NCBI RefSeq assembly: GCF_030530745.1
Contig: NZ_JAUMUI010000017.1
Location: 1 to 45,466, forward strand
DNA: 45,466 nucleotides
Origin: Neisseria sp.
GTDB taxonomy: Bacteria > Pseudomonadota > Gammaproteobacteria > Burkholderiales > Neisseriaceae
Direction: 5' to 3'
Shown: positions 14,256-21,485 of the stretch, piece by piece
Numbering within the stretch: position 1 is the first letter of the stretch
Layout: each line of letters starts with the position of its first letter
The notes under the pieces: model-generated
What the model was told of the DNA's origin: nothing
The model's input: only the letters and a program-made list of their open reading frames with translations
Databases searched by the model: none
Made by a program: the position numbers and the translations under genes

Positions 14256-15242
14256 TTAAAACAGCATATCAGTCGGTTCTTTATGTTCCCGATATTGGTC
14301 GGGGGTAGGACGGGCGGGTTGGTAGGGCGCTTTCGGTTGAGGAGCGGCAGCCGGTGCCGCGGGAGCGGCCGGCGTAACGGGTTTGTCGGCTCCCGCATCC
14401 ACTTCGATTTCGGTGCCGGCCGGCAGCACTTCGTCTTTAACCGGTGCAGGCGGCGGCGCCACTTTCGGTTTGGTGTGGACTGCCGAACCGCTGTTCCAAG
14501 CCAGCGATTGAAGCGGACCTTTCACTTTCACACCTTTGGCACAGGTCAAACAATTGATTTGGCCGGTGCGGTTTTTCAAAATTGCGTCCACCCGTTTGGG
14601 GTTGACGGTTTTGCCGTGTGCTTTCGCCCAAGCGTTGATGCTTTTACGCAATGCTTCGGTGTTGAGGTTTTTCTGGTTATAGGGGTCGCGGTAGGCGGCC
14701 AGCCAGAGATTATTGTTGGCATCGGTGTTCAGCGCGGCCATCTGATAGATAACCGAAGCAGGCGAGCCGCTGGTAATGGTCTTGGCGAATTCCAGTGCAT
14801 CGGGCGATTTCATGCGCACGCAGCCGTGGCTGCGCACCCCGGGTACGCTGGCCGGGGCGTTGGTGCCGTGAATGCCCAAACCGAGCTTGGGATCGCCCAT
14901 ACGCACAAACACAGGACCCAACGGATTGTTCGGGCCGGGCGGAACGGTTTTCACACCGTCGTTACGTTCTTTTTGGATGCTTTTGGGAATATGCCATGTG
15001 GGGTTAAATGCTTTCGCACCGATTTTGTGCTCGCCCAAATTCGTTTGCGTAGCCGCCTTGCCCACTGCGACGGGATAAACTTTGGTTAGTTTGCCGTCGG
15101 TATAAAGAAACAGGCGCTGCTGAGGGATGTTGATGACAACGTGTTGTCCTGCCGACACAGGCCGGTGGTCGGGTACCGGTGTGTTGGCCGCTGCGGCGGT
15201 ACAAAAAGACGCGGCAATGAGGCCGAAACTGATTTTTTTCAT
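14256..15242 (-). CDS. L,D-transpeptidase (YkuD / ErfK-YbiS family)
   Basis: This is a 328-residue exported enzyme. Signal peptide is about 1-19 (KKISFGLIAASFCTAAAA). The YkuD catalytic domain spans about 34-165, with His125 in GIHGTN and the motif S-H139-G-C141-V-R143-M; Cys141 is the nucleophile. Such enzymes form 3-3 peptidoglycan cross-links or attach proteins to peptidoglycan. After a middle helical region with CLTCAKG, the C-terminus (about 270-328) is rich in Pro and Ala, ending KEPTDMLF; such tails are often flexible spacers. A start at 15242 gives the proper signal peptide. Two other periplasmic functions are possible (cross-linking or anchoring), and sequence does not decide. Confidence 0.9.
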   Translation of the reverse strand: MKKISFGLIAASFCTAAAANTPVPDHRPVSAGQHVVINIPQQRLFLYTDGKLTKVYPVAVGKAATQTNLGEHKIGAKAFNPTWHIPKSIQKERNDGVKTVPPGPNNPLGPVFVRMGDPKLGLGIHGTNAPASVPGVRSHGCVRMKSPDALEFAKTITSGSPASVIYQMAALNTDANNNLWLAAYRDPYNQKNLNTEALRKSINAWAKAHGKTVNPKRVDAILKNRTGQINCLTCAKGVKVKGPLQSLAWNSGSAVHTKPKVAPPPAPVKDEVLPAGTEIEVDAGADKPVTPAAPAAPAAAPQPKAPYQPARPTPDQYREHKEPTDMLF

Positions 15243-15388
15243 CGTTAAATAGCTGTGTTGTTATGATTAAAGGGGTAAAACTTGCATGAATCATACCGTA
15301 ATCCGCAGATTTTTGTGAGAAAATACACCGTTTTTGGATAAGGGCGCGCCGAAAACGGCATTCCGGCCTGTATTTTACGGTGCAGAAA

Positions 15389-16717
15389 ATGAAACAGGCA
15401 GTTGAATTAAATAATACGGCCGACGTGTTTTCGATAGATTACGAGGGCAGGGGAGTTGCCCGCGTAAACGGCAAAACGGTTTTTATTAAAGGCGCCCTGC
15501 CGACCGAGCGGGCGGCATTCCGCATTACCCGCAGCAAAAAACAGTTTGACGAAGCGGAGGCAGCAGACATCATCAGGCCGTCTGAAGAACGGGTTGTGCC
15601 CAAGTGTTGTTATTTTAATACATGTGGCGGCTGCGTATTGCAACACGCTTCGCACGGTGCGCAAATCGCCTTTAAACAGAGAATATTAGAAGAGCAACTG
15701 TTACGGATAGGCAAAGTATTTCCCGAGCAAATCCTGCCGCCGGTTTACGGCAGCGCATGGGCATACCGGCACAGGGTACGCTTCAGCGTGGCCGCAGATA
15801 AACAGGGGCGTATCGGCGTGGGTTTTCAGGCAAAGCAAAGTCATGATGTGGTGGCGGTAGAGAGCTGCCCCGTGTTGCCTGGTCATGTTTCCGGCATATT
15901 GCCCGGCCTGAACCGGCTTATAAGAGATTTTGTTAAGATAAACGAGCGGGTTAACTATATAGAATGTGCTGTCGGGGAACGGCTGACGGTTTTGAATGTC
16001 TGTATGCAGGAAGCGCCGGATAAAGCTGCCCGCGAACTGCTTGAACGGTTTTCAGACGGCCTCAACCAAAGCGGTAGAAAATGGCAGATATGGATACAGC
16101 ACAGCAACAAAGCCGCTTATCCGCTTTACCCTGAAAGTGCGCCGCAATTGGCCTACCGCCTGCCTGAATTTGATGTGGAAATACCTTTCCGCCCCGGAGA
16201 TTTCACCCAAATCAACGCCGAAATGAACGCACTGATGGTGGGGCGCGCCTTAAGACTGCTTGATGTTCGGCCCAACGAGCGTGTGGCAGATTTGTTTTGC
16301 GGGCTCGGCAACTTTGCCCTGCCCATTGCAAAAAGCGGTGCGGCAGTTGTTGGTTTGGAAGGCGCGGCGCATTTGGTGTGCCGCGCCCGTGAAAATGCGG
16401 TATTGAACGGTTGTGTCCATGCAGAATTCCGGCAGGCCGATCTGTTTGAAACCACCCCTGAGGCAGTGGCGCAATGGGGGTATTTCGATAAAATGTTGCT
16501 CGATCCGCCCCGAAACGGGGCTTATGCCGTCGTGCAGGCTTTACATGCACCCTATTTACCGAAGAGGATAGTTTATGTATCTTGCAATCCGTCTACGTTG
16601 GCCAGAGATGCCGCTGTATTGACCGATAAGGGCTACCGCTTCAAAGCGGCAGGTGTGATAAATATGTTTGCCCAAACAGCGCATATAGAATCGATAGCTT
16701 GGTTTGAGTTGCATTAA
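15389..16717 (+). CDS. rlmD: 23S rRNA (uracil-C5)-methyltransferase RlmD/RumA
   Basis: This 442-residue SAM-dependent enzyme methylates U1939 of 23S rRNA. An N-terminal TRAM domain (about 5-62) is followed by the [4Fe-4S] cysteines (Cys74 region, Cys79, Cys82 in CGGC, and Cys160 in ESCP). The methyltransferase fold has ADLFCGLGNFALP as SAM motif I, LLDPPRNGA as motif IV, and SCNPSTLARD carrying the nucleophilic cysteine. The ATG at 15389 is chosen; a GTG three codons earlier (15380) is the alternative, and neither has a strong ribosome binding site. The gene stands alone, divergent from ldt. The related RlmC/TrmA enzymes lack this combination of TRAM plus Fe-S. Confidence 0.94.
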   Translation: MKQAVELNNTADVFSIDYEGRGVARVNGKTVFIKGALPTERAAFRITRSKKQFDEAEAADIIRPSEERVVPKCCYFNTCGGCVLQHASHGAQIAFKQRILEEQLLRIGKVFPEQILPPVYGSAWAYRHRVRFSVAADKQGRIGVGFQAKQSHDVVAVESCPVLPGHVSGILPGLNRLIRDFVKINERVNYIECAVGERLTVLNVCMQEAPDKAARELLERFSDGLNQSGRKWQIWIQHSNKAAYPLYPESAPQLAYRLPEFDVEIPFRPGDFTQINAEMNALMVGRALRLLDVRPNERVADLFCGLGNFALPIAKSGAAVVGLEGAAHLVCRARENAVLNGCVHAEFRQADLFETTPEAVAQWGYFDKMLLDPPRNGAYAVVQALHAPYLPKRIVYVSCNPSTLARDAAVLTDKGYRFKAAGVINMFAQTAHIESIAWFELH

Positions 16718-16882: not shown

Positions 16883-18340
16883 TTGGATTATTCACTTTTA
16901 ATCATAGTAATGCTTTCGACTTTGTTCGTTTTATTGTTTGTTCGATACAGACAAAGCACGGGCAATGCAAAAAAGCAAAAAACAGGTAGGCCGTCTGAAT
17001 CCGTCCGCCGTGCGGAAAGCGGGGAGCGCGCTTCAGACGGCGGGGATTGGATGAGCCAGGTTTCCCAGTCGGTATCGGAAACTGCAAACAACGACTGGGG
17101 GTGGGACAGCATAGGCCAAACCGAAGCATCGACTGCGGCAGTGTCTGCTCAAGAAGTCGATCCGCTGACGGAATACCAAGTTTACAAACAATTTGGTTAC
17201 GAAAGTAAAGCAGCCGCTTCTTTGGCGGGTTATCTGAACGGATTGTCAGACGGGGCGCCGGAAAAACTCGTGCACGAACTGGCCGGATTAAGCCTGCGTA
17301 CCGGCGATATTGATTTATTGGCAGACACCTTGGAGCGTCACGGCAATGTCCTGCCTGAAGAAAGTGTGGCTGAGTATGTAAAAGCGGGCTTGGTTGCCAA
17401 TTCCACGCACCTCCAATTACGTGTTATGGCAGAACGCCGTTTGGGCTGGAGTATGCAGGAGGTTTCGCGCCAGATTGGTGAAAAAACCGGTTTGGATGAA
17501 ATCCAATCGGCGGCATCCGAGCCCGCCCTGACAGTCAATACCTCCGGCATGGTTCGTGCAGGCGAGGCGGGTACTGACGCCCGGGCGCCGATTGTCATCG
17601 GCCGCAACGCTGACTTGGACGGTGTAACAGAAGAAGAAATGGGCGCGGTTATCGGCTTCGTTAAGCCGGAAAAGAGCGCTAAGATTTTAAGAGGCAAAGT
17701 GGATTACGAAACTGCTTTACGTCAATATAATAAAGCCATTCAAAAATCGGCTAAACCCGCAAGTCTGATTATCGACGCGTTGAAGCTCGATTATCAAAAC
17801 GAAGAAGTCAATCAGTTTGCAAAACACTTGTGGAAATTGTATTACACATTAGGACAATACGGTCGTCAGGTAAAAGAGCGTATGCTGGGCTGGGGTTACA
17901 GCCTGGGATACCACGAAGTATTCGACGATTTGGAAAAGGGGCCGTCTGAACAGAAAGTTCGTGAAATCGGACTGGCAAGAGGTTATTTACAACCAACTTC
18001 CCTGCAACTGAAATCCAAGTACCGTGATTTGGTGCAAAAAGACGATTCGCTTATCAGCGCAAATTCCTCGCCGGCCGAAGAGGCAATCAAAGAAGTGGAA
18101 TCTTTGCTGATGTACGGCCAATTGGATCAGGCCATCGGCACTTTAGAGCAGGCAGTATTGCAATATCCGCAAGAATCCCAGCTGTATGTCATGCTGTTTG
18201 ACCTTTACGAGCGCGCAGAAGATTGGTCCCGTTTGGAACAATTCTTGCGCCTGCTCCGCGAGCGTGTGGCAAGCCTTCCTGAGGAAGTTGTTTTGGCGAT
18301 GAGCCGGTTGTTACGCCGAGTGAATCAACAGTCTAAATAG
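16883..18340 (+). CDS. membrane-anchored FimV-like / TPR-like protein, first gene of GTPase operon
   Basis: This 485-residue protein is not of a firmly known function. Residues about 3-20 form one transmembrane helix (YSLLIIVMLSTLFVLLFV), followed by a basic, low-complexity linker (about 24-55) and a large, presumably cytoplasmic, helical region. The segment DPLTEYQVYKQFGYESKA resembles the FimV motif DPLAEADVYLAYGRYEQA. The C-terminus (about 400-475) looks like TPR helices (MYGQLDQAIGTLEQAV, LYVMLFDLYERAEDW). FimV-type proteins organise cell poles and type IV pili. The start is TTG at 16883 with GGGAGA upstream; the next in-frame ATG (16910) would cut into the membrane helix. An inverted DUS pair is embedded in the linker. 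It is the first of five same-strand genes and is separated by 27 bp from the next. Confidence 0.7.
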   Translation: MDYSLLIIVMLSTLFVLLFVRYRQSTGNAKKQKTGRPSESVRRAESGERASDGGDWMSQVSQSVSETANNDWGWDSIGQTEASTAAVSAQEVDPLTEYQVYKQFGYESKAAASLAGYLNGLSDGAPEKLVHELAGLSLRTGDIDLLADTLERHGNVLPEESVAEYVKAGLVANSTHLQLRVMAERRLGWSMQEVSRQIGEKTGLDEIQSAASEPALTVNTSGMVRAGEAGTDARAPIVIGRNADLDGVTEEEMGAVIGFVKPEKSAKILRGKVDYETALRQYNKAIQKSAKPASLIIDALKLDYQNEEVNQFAKHLWKLYYTLGQYGRQVKERMLGWGYSLGYHEVFDDLEKGPSEQKVREIGLARGYLQPTSLQLKSKYRDLVQKDDSLISANSSPAEEAIKEVESLLMYGQLDQAIGTLEQAVLQYPQESQLYVMLFDLYERAEDWSRLEQFLRLLRERVASLPEEVVLAMSRLLRRVNQQSK

Positions 18341-18367
18341 TAAATACTTTTTTAAAGAGTGCCGATA

Positions 18368-19465
18368 ATGGACAACCTGTTACCGAAAGTAAAAACCGTA
18401 CGGATTATGCTGCAAGAGATGGGCGAGCAACAAGAAGCCGTTTTCCGTATGGCATTTAAAATGCACAACACCACCAATTATGAAATCGTTACTGCCGAAT
18501 CGGCAGAACAACCGGATTTGGTTTTGGTGGATACCGATACCGAGCAGGGTATTGCCGGATGGAAAAAAGCAAAAGAAGCCTATCCCAACGTTCCGGTGGC
18601 TATGTTTTCGGCGAAAGAGCCAAACGTTACCACGCCCTATCTGGCCAAACCGATTAAATTCGATACCTTGTTCCCGATTTTGAGAAGTTTGTCGCAAGGA
18701 GGTGGGATTTTTGAATTCTCCGAGCAGAAACAGCAGGAACGTTCGGGTGATGTAGGAGCGGACGGTGCGCGCAAGGCAACCATCCACCGCTTCAATCCGC
18801 AAAAAGGCTTACTGGGCGCTTTAAGATTTGCCAGTCAAGGCAGTCAGGATATCGCCGTTTTGCATGAAGGCAAGCCTGTATTGATTGTGTTTCCCAGTAT
18901 CCAACGCGTATTGCTGACGGTAAGTGCGGCCGAGCTTGAAAAGTTGAGCAAAGACGACAATCTTGCAGTAGTTTGCAAAGCGGTGCCGGATAATCCCCAG
19001 TGGAAAGAAAAAGCCAAAGTAACGATTATGTCGTGTTTGTGGCAAATGGCTATCTGGACGGCACAGGGGCGCCTGATTTATCCGATGACGCCGCAAACCG
19101 TATTTACGCTCAAACGCTGGCCCAACCTGACCCGTTTGGCCCCAGTGCCGGAGTCCATGCGGTTGTCGGCATTTCTGACCAAAACATCAGTTAACCTGAA
19201 CATTCTTTATAAAGTTATGCCCTTGGAAATGCCGGATATCCTCAACTATCTGGCCGCAACCTACGTTACCGGCTTTTTGGCTACCGATGCCGAATTCACC
19301 AATCAAGACAAGTCGGCCAATGTATCCGCAGAAGGCATGAAAGTAGGAGGCGAAGTTCCTGACAACCAAATGAGCAAAGACGCCCAAAAAGCAGTCAGTC
19401 CGTCTGCCGAGCAGCCACGCAGTCTGTTGCAGCGCTTGATGCGCAAACTTATCGGCAAGAAATAA
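18368..19465 (+). CDS. receiver-like protein of the GTPase operon, function unknown
   Basis: This is a 365-residue cytoplasmic protein. Residues about 10-115 look like a CheY-type receiver fold: a central strand with VLVDTDT (candidate phosphorylation Asp), MFSAK at the Ser/Thr position and LAKPIKFDTLF at the conserved Lys-Pro. The N-terminal acidic pair normal for receivers is missing (VRIMLQEMGEQQ instead), so it may be a pseudo-receiver. The remaining part (about 135-315) has alternating beta and helix segments that I do not recognise, then a disordered stretch and a basic tail (LLQRLMRKLIGKK). ATG 18368 is preferred over GTG 18359 because AAAGAG lies at a proper distance. Position between the FimV-like gene and the GTPase suggests a regulatory or adaptor role. 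Confidence 0.65.
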   Translation: MDNLLPKVKTVRIMLQEMGEQQEAVFRMAFKMHNTTNYEIVTAESAEQPDLVLVDTDTEQGIAGWKKAKEAYPNVPVAMFSAKEPNVTTPYLAKPIKFDTLFPILRSLSQGGGIFEFSEQKQQERSGDVGADGARKATIHRFNPQKGLLGALRFASQGSQDIAVLHEGKPVLIVFPSIQRVLLTVSAAELEKLSKDDNLAVVCKAVPDNPQWKEKAKVTIMSCLWQMAIWTAQGRLIYPMTPQTVFTLKRWPNLTRLAPVPESMRLSAFLTKTSVNLNILYKVMPLEMPDILNYLAATYVTGFLATDAEFTNQDKSANVSAEGMKVGGEVPDNQMSKDAQKAVSPSAEQPRSLLQRLMRKLIGKK

Positions 19466-19480
19466 TTTAAGGGGTTATAA

Positions 19481-20017
19481 ATGAAAGAGAATAAAATTAT
19501 TTTTACCGGCCCCGTGGGCGTGGGTAAAACAACGGCTATCTCCGCATTGTCCGACGAACCGCCGGTACAAACCGATGCTGATGCTTCTGATATGACCTTG
19601 GTACGCAAAGGCTATACAACGGTTGCTATGGATTACGGCGTTATCCGTTTGGACGAAGAAACCAAAGTCCACCTATACGGCACGCCGGGGCAAGAGCGTT
19701 TTAACTTTATGTGGGAGATTTTGAGCCAAGGGAGCATGGGTTTAATTTTGCTGCTAGACAACACAAGAACCAATCCTCTGAAAGATTTGCAGTTTTTCTT
19801 GGATGCTTTCCGAGGATTGCTGAAAACGGCCCCGTTGGTTGTGGGTGTTACCAAAATGGATATCCGTTCCTTGCCGGGAGTGGATGTATATCAAAAATAT
19901 TTGGCGCAGAATAATTTTAATGTACCGGTATTTGAAATTGATGCACGCCGAGAAGATGATGTCAAACAATTAGTCAGTGCAATGCTCTTTTCAATTGACC
20001 CGGGATTAGAGGTATAA
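19481..20017 (+). CDS. Ras-like small GTPase (MglA / COG2229 type)
   Basis: This is a 178-residue single-domain GTPase. The P-loop is G10-PVGV-G15-K16-T17. The switch II region is YGTPGQERF at 66-74, where the usual G3 aspartate is Gly67, as in the bacterial COG2229 family. The G4 base-recognition motif is T124-K-M-D127, and DAR at 154-156 is in the G5 place. Ribosome binding site AAGGGG lies 8 nt before ATG. Bacterial GTPases of this kind pair with Roadblock/LC7 proteins, which act as activators or effectors (MglA-MglB in Myxococcus sets cell polarity and pilus activity). Here two Roadblock-type genes follow; the next starts 1 nt after the stop. The GTPase identity is secure; the role is inferred. 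Confidence 0.88.
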   Translation: MKENKIIFTGPVGVGKTTAISALSDEPPVQTDADASDMTLVRKGYTTVAMDYGVIRLDEETKVHLYGTPGQERFNFMWEILSQGSMGLILLLDNTRTNPLKDLQFFLDAFRGLLKTAPLVVGVTKMDIRSLPGVDVYQKYLAQNNFNVPVFEIDARREDDVKQLVSAMLFSIDPGLEV

Positions 20018-20018
20018 G

Positions 20019-20660
20019 ATGGAATCCACACTTTCTTTACAATCGAATTTGTACCCTAAAATCACGCCGGCCGGTGCATATTATGCTGTTTCAGGGGATA
20101 CGCCCAGCGCCAGCCGGACACTGTTATACGGTTTGTTGCGGGCGAATCCTTCCGAAACCATTAGCAGCGAAAAACTTTTGGCTTGGGCGGACACCAGCGA
20201 TATCGACAGCGCATTAAACCTGCTTTACCGCCTTCAGCGCTTGGAGTTTTTATATGGTGACGAGAATGTCGGCAGTGAAGACACCAACCTGACCGACGAA
20301 GAGTTGCCCGATCTGTTGGCCAAGTTGTCGAATTCAGGCAAGGCCTTGTTGGCAGACGAAAACGGTTTGTATTTTGCCAATGCCGGCTTCCACCACGAAG
20401 CGGCGGAAGAAGTGGGTATTCTGGCCGGTGAAATTGCAGCCGTTGTTGACAAACACCAGCTGTTGATTAAGAACAACCTGCATATCCACCACAGCGCGTG
20501 GGGCATTTGCGACCCTTCCGGCCAAAGCGAATTAACTTTCTTCCCCCTCTATATCGGCATGAGCAAACTGATTTTGGTTATCGGGGGGCTGCCCGATTTG
20601 AATAAAGAAGAGTTCGTTACTTTGGTGAAAGTATTGCATAACCGTTACGGGCGGCATTAA
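20019..20660 (+). CDS. Roadblock-like C-terminal domain protein of the GTPase operon
   Basis: This 213-residue protein starts one base after the GTPase stop codon, with AGAGG inside the GTPase end as ribosome binding site, so translation is probably coupled. The N-terminal part (about 25-80) looks like a small winged-helix or helical domain (SRTLLYGLLRANPSETISSEKLLAWAD). The C-terminal part (about 90-213) has a pattern compatible with a divergent Roadblock/LC7 fold: a long helix, strands with NGLYFANAGF, and LTFFPLYIGMSKLILVIGGLPD. I cannot assign a named family with certainty. The order and coupling suggest that it binds the GTPase. Confidence 0.6.
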   Translation: MESTLSLQSNLYPKITPAGAYYAVSGDTPSASRTLLYGLLRANPSETISSEKLLAWADTSDIDSALNLLYRLQRLEFLYGDENVGSEDTNLTDEELPDLLAKLSNSGKALLADENGLYFANAGFHHEAAEEVGILAGEIAAVVDKHQLLIKNNLHIHHSAWGICDPSGQSELTFFPLYIGMSKLILVIGGLPDLNKEEFVTLVKVLHNRYGRH

Positions 20661-20734
20661 GCCAATACTGTAAACATTCACCCGGCAGGCTGGTTTTCAG
20701 ACGGTCTGTCCACTTTAGTGAGATAGGATAAAAA

Positions 20735-21097
20735 ATGCGTGAACAATTATTGATTTCTGTGTTAAGTGATTTGAACAATACATCTACCGATATTACCGCC
20801 TCTGCGGTAATTTCAACCGACGGTTTGCCGATTGCCACCTTGTTGCCCAGCAACCTGAATGCAGATCGTGTGGGGGCTATGTCTGCTACTTTGCTGGCGT
20901 TGGGTAACCGAGCTGTGCACGAGCTGGCTTGCGGCGATCTTGATCAAGTTATGGTAAAAGGCTCGAACGGTTATGTTTTGCTGAGCCAGGCAGGAAGCAA
21001 TGCGGTTTTGGCTTTGATGGCTCGGGAAAGCGGAAAATTGGGATTGATTCTGCTGGATGCCAAACGTGCGGCTAAGCACATTGCCGATATTTTGTAA
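20735..21097 (+). CDS. Roadblock/LC7 domain protein (MglB-like)
   Basis: This is a 120-residue protein made of a single Roadblock/LC7 domain: N-terminal helix (LLISVLSDLNN), strand turn ITASAVISTDGLPIATLLP, a long central helix (DRVGAMSATLLALGNRAVHEL), strands GYVLLSQAGSNAVLALMAR and a final helix. Proteins of this size and fold regulate small Ras-like GTPases, as MglB does for MglA. It follows the previous gene after 74 bp that include one variant uptake sequence (CAGACGGTCT), so it may be expressed partly on its own. It is the last gene of the cluster. Confidence 0.85.
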   Translation: MREQLLISVLSDLNNTSTDITASAVISTDGLPIATLLPSNLNADRVGAMSATLLALGNRAVHELACGDLDQVMVKGSNGYVLLSQAGSNAVLALMARESGKLGLILLDAKRAAKHIADIL

Positions 21098-21363: not shown

Positions 21364-21393
21364 TTGACAGAATTTTATTAAAGCAAGTATAAT
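21364..21393 (+). promoter_or_regulatory. tRNA-Asn promoter
   Basis: TTGACA (21364-21369) and TATAAT (21388-21393) are both perfect consensus boxes, spaced by 18 bp, about 16 bp before the mature tRNA. Confidence 0.85.
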
Positions 21394-21409: not shown

Positions 21410-21485
21410 TCCCCGATAGCTCAGTCGGTAGAGCGACGGACTGTTAATCCGCAGGTCCCTGGTTCGAGCCCAGGTCGGGGAGCCA
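21410..21485 (+). tRNA. tRNA-Asn (anticodon GTT)
   Basis: The 76-nt sequence folds into a complete cloverleaf: acceptor TCCCCGA/TCGGGGA, D arm GCTC..GAGC, anticodon stem ACGGA/TCCGC (its closing pair is an A-C mismatch) around loop CTGTTAA, and T arm CCTGG-TTCGAGC-CCAGG. The anticodon GTT is at 21443-21445. CCA is encoded. Its 3' side borders a decayed integrase, so it was probably used as a phage or island attachment site. Confidence 0.97.

What the first reader, a model, noticed from the sequence alone, without database searches (positions are those of the whole stretch)
16883..21097. Five-gene operon: FimV-like anchor, receiver-like protein, Ras-like GTPase and two Roadblock-type proteins
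Seen: five same-strand genes with gaps of 27, 15, 1 and 74 bp. The third is a clear small GTPase, the last a single-domain Roadblock/LC7 protein, the fourth a divergent Roadblock candidate, the first a single-pass membrane protein with a FimV-like motif and TPR-like helices, the second receiver-like. Known: MglA GTPases with MglB Roadblock proteins set cell polarity and pilus activity in Myxococcus and Thermus; FimV proteins act as polar hubs for pili. Inference: this is a membrane-anchored GTPase switch, perhaps controlling type IV pili, DNA uptake or cell polarity in coccoid or rod-shaped Neisseriaceae. I know of no full description of such a system in Neisseria.
Basis: partly seen in the sequence, partly recalled or inferred. 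Interest (0 to 1): 0.85.

Follow-up and report, generated by a model that had tools for sequence, protein, structure and literature searches.

The report
Five-gene MglA-type switch for pili
This Neisseria operon encodes a small on/off protein (a GTPase) with two likely regulators, a membrane anchor and a signal-receiver protein; it belongs to an already catalogued but unexplained family and tends to vanish together with parts of the grappling-hook pilus motor, so it probably controls pili.

The parts
16883..18340 (+). P1: single-pass membrane protein, helical region, C-terminal TPR-like stretch (residues about 405-461); constant first gene
   Evidence: FimV label not supported
18368..19465 (+). 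P2: receiver-like domain (9-112; D55, D57, K94, P95 invariant), variable linker, alpha/beta plus helical C-terminal domain, conserved C-terminal helix (LLQRLMRKL)
19481..20017 (+). P3: MglA-type GTPase; P-loop GPVGVGKTT at 10-18, TPGQ at 68-71, TKMD at 124
20019..20660 (+). P4: small N-terminal domain (strand, four helices, strand; winged-helix-like by element order only) plus divergent Roadblock domain (89-212)
20735..21097 (+). P5: single-domain Roadblock/LC7 protein, candidate MglB-like regulator
15380..16717 (+). rlmD, usual upstream neighbour in Neisseria; marks the site in genomes without the operon
14256..15242 (-). L,D-transpeptidase gene paired with rlmD; used as query to fetch named loci with and without the operon

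Best explanation
The operon encodes a Group 3 MglA-type GTPase switch that works at the inner membrane and acts on the type IV pilus machine. P3 cycles between GTP and GDP forms. P5, and P4 as a second, divergent Roadblock subunit, bind P3 and set its state (which of them is GAP or otherwise is unknown). P1 is a membrane-tethered TPR-like scaffold or effector, in the place that SgmX has in Myxococcus. P2 is a receiver-type input or adaptor that may also sit on the membrane by its C-terminal helix. GTP-bound P3 would promote or position pilus extension and retraction. Shown here: gene content, folds of single chains, synteny, and joint absence or divergence of the operon and the PilB/PilC/PilD/PilT set. 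Inferred: every binding step, the GAP role, membrane binding of P2 and the direction of control.
For: Five-gene order in 19 of 20 family loci and 17 of 28 named loci. GTPase in 71 of 84 genomes. At least two PilT-family genes in 62 of 63 near-complete genomes with the operon and 1 of 9 without (Fisher 6.7e-9, not corrected for kinship). About seven changes on the RpoB tree, bootstrap range 6-7, five forced by well-supported branches; in pairs of rows PilT reduction goes the same way in 4.5 of 5 on average and never the other way. PilC distance over CoaE distance is 0.83-2.52 in 10 genomes without and 0.36-0.56 in 27 with the operon, no overlap, while RpoB and CoaE do not differ (RpoB scores). 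P-loop residues and Q71 invariant in 44 of 44. Roadblock fold of P4. A Snodgrassella strain with a mutated orphan Roadblock gene spreads differently on soft agar (PMC11112851 section 19). In Myxococcus MglA-GTP binds the TPR protein SgmX, which matters for polar PilB (PMC7519303, passages).
Against: The kinship-aware test on well-supported branches reaches only p 0.06-0.125, 0.25-0.5 on the first tree. Joint absence may reflect lifestyle change and not a direct link. G009 lacks the operon but keeps 2 PilT-family genes; G043 has it with 1. N. gonorrhoeae DSM 9188 has a broken operon and open PilB, PilT and RpoB. PilC over RpoB overlaps between the groups. None of the ten neighbours annotated in the window is a pilus gene. 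Wuichet et al. proposed transcriptional output.
Confidence: 0.6

Rival explanations
1. The operon is a signal-transduction system whose output is gene transcription: P2 (receiver plus helical C-terminal domain) and the winged-helix-like start of P4 bind DNA under control of the GTPase.
For: Wuichet and Sogaard-Andersen predicted receiver plus winged helix in the conserved protein and proposed this (PMC4316618 section 18). Element order in the P2 and P4 models is compatible with winged helices.
Against: P1 has a membrane segment in 36 of 36 examined and P2 ends in a conserved hydrophobic-basic helix. No fold match was obtained for the P2 C-terminal domain or the P4 start. Winged helices also serve protein contacts (recalled). 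Genomic link to pilus genes.
Confidence: 0.2
2. The operon has no direct link with pili; both are lost or relaxed independently in lineages that changed lifestyle.
For: The kinship-aware test is weak. The gonococcal genome has open pilus motor genes with a broken operon. G009 keeps 2 PilT-family genes. Other accessory genes were not tested as controls.
Against: RpoB and CoaE are not more diverged in the same genomes. Snodgrassella mutant phenotype. In genus g8 a GTPase paralogue (about 50% identical) lies next to a gene of a cluster whose tested member is an Hpt/HATPase protein with a weak, below-cut-off PilJ match.
Confidence: 0.25
3. P1 is a FimV-family polar hub that anchors the system at the pole.
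For: Single membrane pass and TPR-like stretch.
Against: No FimV model among the hits of 23 orthologues at E up to 0.1, FimV_Cterm finds another gene, profile comparison 2%, no room for a periplasmic domain before the membrane segment.
Confidence: 0.08

Closest known systems
Group 3 MglA systems (Wuichet and Sogaard-Andersen 2014, PMC4316618)
   Same: Conserved receiver-like protein, MglA homologue and one or two MglB homologues, in beta- and gamma-proteobacteria including Neisseria
   Different: Their typical content in section 18 does not name the membrane TPR-like gene P1 (their supplementary table was not seen); P4 is shown here to carry a Roadblock domain after an extra N-terminal domain
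Snodgrassella mgl operon (Meng et al. 2024, PMC11112851)
   Same: Family Neisseriaceae, one mglA with two coupled mglB genes
   Different: A third, orphan mglB carries the mutation studied; no third Roadblock gene was found in the window genome, though one search also misses P4, so a divergent one could be missed
MglA-MglB-SgmX of Myxococcus xanthus (PMC7519303)
   Same: Ras-like GTPase, Roadblock regulator, TPR protein, type IV pili
   Different: Group 1 GTPase; SgmX is 1,060 residues without a transmembrane domain; response regulators are not encoded near mglA
Actinobacterial conservon (CvnA-D)
   Same: GTPase plus Roadblock plus signalling protein in one operon
   Different: Has a histidine kinase and no response regulator; no TPR anchor described there

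Membership tests
Group 3 MglA system | Gene neighbourhood: receiver-like protein, MglA homologue, one or two MglB homologues | tested here: met
Group 3 MglA system | GTPase falls in the Group 3 clade of the MglA tree | not tested
   No MglA-wide tree was built; the paper names Neisseria spp. in Group 3
Group 3 MglA system | Extra residues between G1 and G2, typical of bacterial MglA | tested here: inconclusive
   K16 to Q71 is 55 residues in P3; Ras K16 to Q61 is 45 (recalled). The place of the insert was not aligned
MglB / Roadblock-LC7 | Roadblock domain in P5 | tested here: met
MglB / Roadblock-LC7 | Roadblock domain in P4 | tested here: met
   the window protein alone has no family hit
MglB / Roadblock-LC7 | GAP activity on the partner GTPase | not testable with these tools
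   needs biochemistry
FimV/HubP | FimV C-terminal domain (TIGR03504) | tested here: not met
   the match over the cut-off is another gene; none among 23 orthologues at E up to 0.1
FimV/HubP | Periplasmic LysM-like domain before the membrane segment | tested here: not met
   the hydrophobic segment starts within the first few residues of the window protein, so no domain precedes it
Response regulator | Receiver fold | tested here: met
   (predicted model)
Response regulator | Phosphorylation residues: acceptor Asp, Lys, acidic pair | tested here: inconclusive
   D55, K94 and P95 invariant in 26 of 26; I saw no acidic pair after the first strand

The most novel reading that the evidence does not exclude
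A complete membrane-tethered MglA-type switch licenses the retractile type IV pilus motor across the Neisseriaceae and related families; it is lost each time that motor decays and has recently broken in the gonococcus, which then runs its pili without a spatial switch.
Probability: 0.3. Interest if true: 0.75.

Novelty: new variant of a known kind. Interest (0 to 1): 0.55.

Why it matters
How cells of Neisseria and its relatives decide where and when to extend and retract pili is not known to me as solved. A dedicated GTPase switch, present in most sampled genomes of the family and absent or broken in some, would make that question testable in harmless commensals. It would extend MglA-type control of pili from Myxococcus and Thermus to a family of coccoid and rod-shaped bacteria, and gives two unexplained proteins (P1 and P4) to test as effector and regulator.

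Tried and rejected
FimV membership of P1: rejected. PilB as sole target: dropped, since PilC and PilD diverge as well. PATAN domain in P2 (cyanobacterial PATAN regulators bind PilB1; PMC12288463, passages): no such Pfam hit for four C-terminal pieces at E up to 10, where HMMER's filters drop most weak hits, so it stays a lead. P4 start and P2 C-terminal domain as winged helices: element order only; most rows of the structural second looks span residues 89-212 of P4 and 8-112 of P2. Foldseek search of P2 was never accepted. PDB sequence search gave only weak hits for P4 and P2 and a TPR hit (HsiE1, E 0.001) for P1. Promoter and terminator counts in the operon do not exceed shuffles. Searches for published work: open-licence papers only. 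Moraxellaceae was not examined separately.

Rows dropped or to be corrected: L143 (distant hit) left out. G005, G042 and G082 left out (a gene or RpoB missing). G051 left out of the pair test. 27 near-copies or poor rows left out. Ten of 84 genomes without a complete RpoB are in no tree, among them 3 of the 13 without the GTPase (G005, G007, G042). G061 (58% complete) counts among the 71 GTPase genomes, but its match is a 47% paralogue; one search labelled it as having the operon, and the near-complete table do not hold it. Genomes with 2 or 3 PilT-family genes were all entered as 3 (G009 as 2); the at-least-2 state is unchanged. In one search eleven of the gene rows, all from operon-bearing genomes, had a stop written as X: six PilB rows before the gene's start, four CoaE rows near the end, one PilD row inside; one search repeated the test on the longest X-free piece and well-filled columns, and its numbers are the ones used.
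Full report
What is there. Five same-strand ORFs at 16883-21097 have gaps of 27, 15, 1 and 74 bp. A tRNA-Asn lies at 21410-21485 downstream; rlmD and an L,D-transpeptidase gene lie upstream.

P3 is a Ras-like GTPase. G10, G13, G15, K16 and T18 of the P-loop and Q71 are invariant in 44 of 44 aligned sequences, distant ones included. Solved MglA structures match by sequence at E 6e-5 to 2e-4, behind many eukaryotic Rab-type proteins. P5 is a Roadblock/LC7 protein; its best PDB matches are archaeal Roadblock proteins (E 1e-19 and 7e-18), then more weakly Rv3364c and CvnB5, and MglB at E 0.07 (organism names).

P1 has a strongly hydrophobic 20-residue segment near its start in 36 of 36 open orthologues or fragments, once possible upstream starts are allowed, and TPR_14 in 22 of 23 at E up to 0.1. 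It is not FimV by the tests made.

Distribution. The GTPase is found in 71 of 84 Neisseriaceae genomes (in one of them, G061, 58% complete, only as a 47% paralogue). P5 is found in 71 of 84 and P1 in 74 of 84, the extra three being fragments or partial relatives (G009, G056, G057). The five genes stand in one order in 19 of 20 loci read; the other, G009, has only remnants of P1 beyond rlmD. In three of the 19 there are interruptions: one TGA in P1 of G010, P1 split in G012, several genes in G023. Of 28 named loci, 17 hold the operon, three of them with split genes (N. gonorrhoeae, N. polysaccharea, N. weixii); in the other 11 it is absent or the contig ends soon. In the order-wide sample 37 of 399 genomes have the GTPase at E up to 1e-30, and loci of several other families show the same neighbours. 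In a phylum-wide sample 54 of 398 have a match at E up to 1e-25; P2 and P4 were not found beside most of those examined outside the order.

Names. This is inference. The window's nearest named locus is N. dentiae (94-99% in P1-P5).

Broken copies. In G023 the GTPase, P2 and P4 are each split over two frames, P1 holds stop codons, P5 is open, and rlmD matches there only over 30 residues. PilB, PilT and RpoB of that genome are open and the transpeptidase gives one unbroken match, so the lesions look local and not a general assembly fault. Intact copies exist in its near relatives. In N. weixii (85% complete) neighbouring genes are split as well, which points to assembly errors. One gonococcal genome was seen; others were not.

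Link to pili. PilB is found in 82 of 84 genomes (missing in G007 and G074); the 12 without the operon that have it hold the lowest scores, except that G082, with the operon (786.8 bits), scores below G009, without it (791.4). Among genomes at least 90% complete and at most 5% contaminated, 62 of 63 with the operon and 1 of 9 without have two or more PilT-family ATPases at E up to 1e-60 (Fisher 6.7e-9, no correction for kinship). The exceptions are G043 (draft, with operon, 1) and G009 (without, 2). B. denitrificans has none. RpoB scores do not differ visibly.

On an RpoB tree of 74 genomes the operon label needs 7 changes, 3 forced; on a more careful tree of 47 it needs 7, bootstrap range 6-7, 5 forced. 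Changes cannot tell gain from loss, but the remnant in G009 and the same order in other families speak for loss. In pairs that share no branch, on well-supported branches, PilT reduction goes with operon absence in 4.5 of 5 pairs on average, never against it; p is 0.06-0.125, so this is suggestive only. One of the losses rests on G039 (68% complete) and one on G041 (85%).

Rates. On the fixed RpoB topology, 37 genomes (10 without the operon), median distances to operon-bearing genomes are, without against with: RpoB 0.26 and 0.25; CoaE 1.30 and 1.53; PilD 1.72 and 0.93; PilC 1.65 and 0.68; PilB 1.41 and 0.52 (a cleaned repeat, which gave the same picture). The PilC/CoaE ratio does not overlap (0.83-2.52 against 0.36-0.56). 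PilB/CoaE (0.50-2.24 against 0.28-0.55), PilD/CoaE and the ratios over RpoB overlap. The rank tests ignore kinship, and one gene tree may misplace some rows: G045 has inflated distances in four genes. G023, with a broken operon, has ordinary ratios, as expected if its loss is recent.

Prior work. PMC4316618 (passages, sections 13 and 18) describes Group 3 MglA with highly conserved neighbourhoods and proposes control of transcription. PMC11112851 (abstract, passages and section 19; [quoted passage not shown] It also states, from revisited Tn-seq data, that all three mglB genes are beneficial in the gut; the Tn-seq paper itself is not held. I found no report of P1 as part of the system or of the co-absence with pilus ATPases in the searches listed under Tried and rejected; most subscription papers are not held.

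Reading. The best account is an MglA-type GTPase switch at the inner membrane acting on the pilus machine. Gene content, single-chain folds and correlations are shown; binding, GAP role and direction of control are inferred. The largest doubts are the modest number of independent losses, the gonococcal exception, and the rival of transcriptional output.

Noticed in passing
L282, L284, L285, L288, L290, L294, L295, L296: The orphan Roadblock gene of other Neisseriaceae and of G011 lies in a recurring cassette with a PAS-domain gene (Pfam on L282, L290, L296) and a phosphonate-binding-type gene (PF12974 on L282, L295); the other loci by sequence clustering only. In L300, from another family, two genes of the latter cluster follow the operon's own P5 (one tested: PF12974).
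   Followed up: partly
L292, L293, L297, L298: Genus g8 genomes carry GTPase paralogues: one near an Hpt/HATPase protein with a weak PilJ match and a CheY-like protein (L292, part of that output was cut), in L297 next to a protein of the same cluster and a CheX protein; another beside an unknown 328-457 aa protein and a short Roadblock-like protein (L293, L298).
   Followed up: partly
L102:6912-7520 and L103:6014-6616: Genus g6 lacks the GTPase but keeps a gene of about 200 aa like the N-terminal part of P1 (about 25% identical), beside the L,D-transpeptidase gene.
   Followed up: no
window 16990-16999, 17032-17041, 17941-17950: The 10-mer GCCGTCTGAA (Neisseria DNA uptake sequence, recalled) occurs 55 times in the window against 0.14 expected; an inverted pair and a third copy lie inside the coding region of P1.
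   Followed up: no
window 21364-21393: A 12 of 12 sigma-70 promoter match just upstream of the tRNA-Asn gene.
   Followed up: no
L037:9195-10010 (G012): P1 is split over two frames in G012 while the other four genes give single full-length matches.
   Followed up: no
L140 (N. weixii complete genome): Several neighbouring genes are split over frames and the matching genome G051 scores 85% complete, which suggests assembly errors.
   Followed up: no
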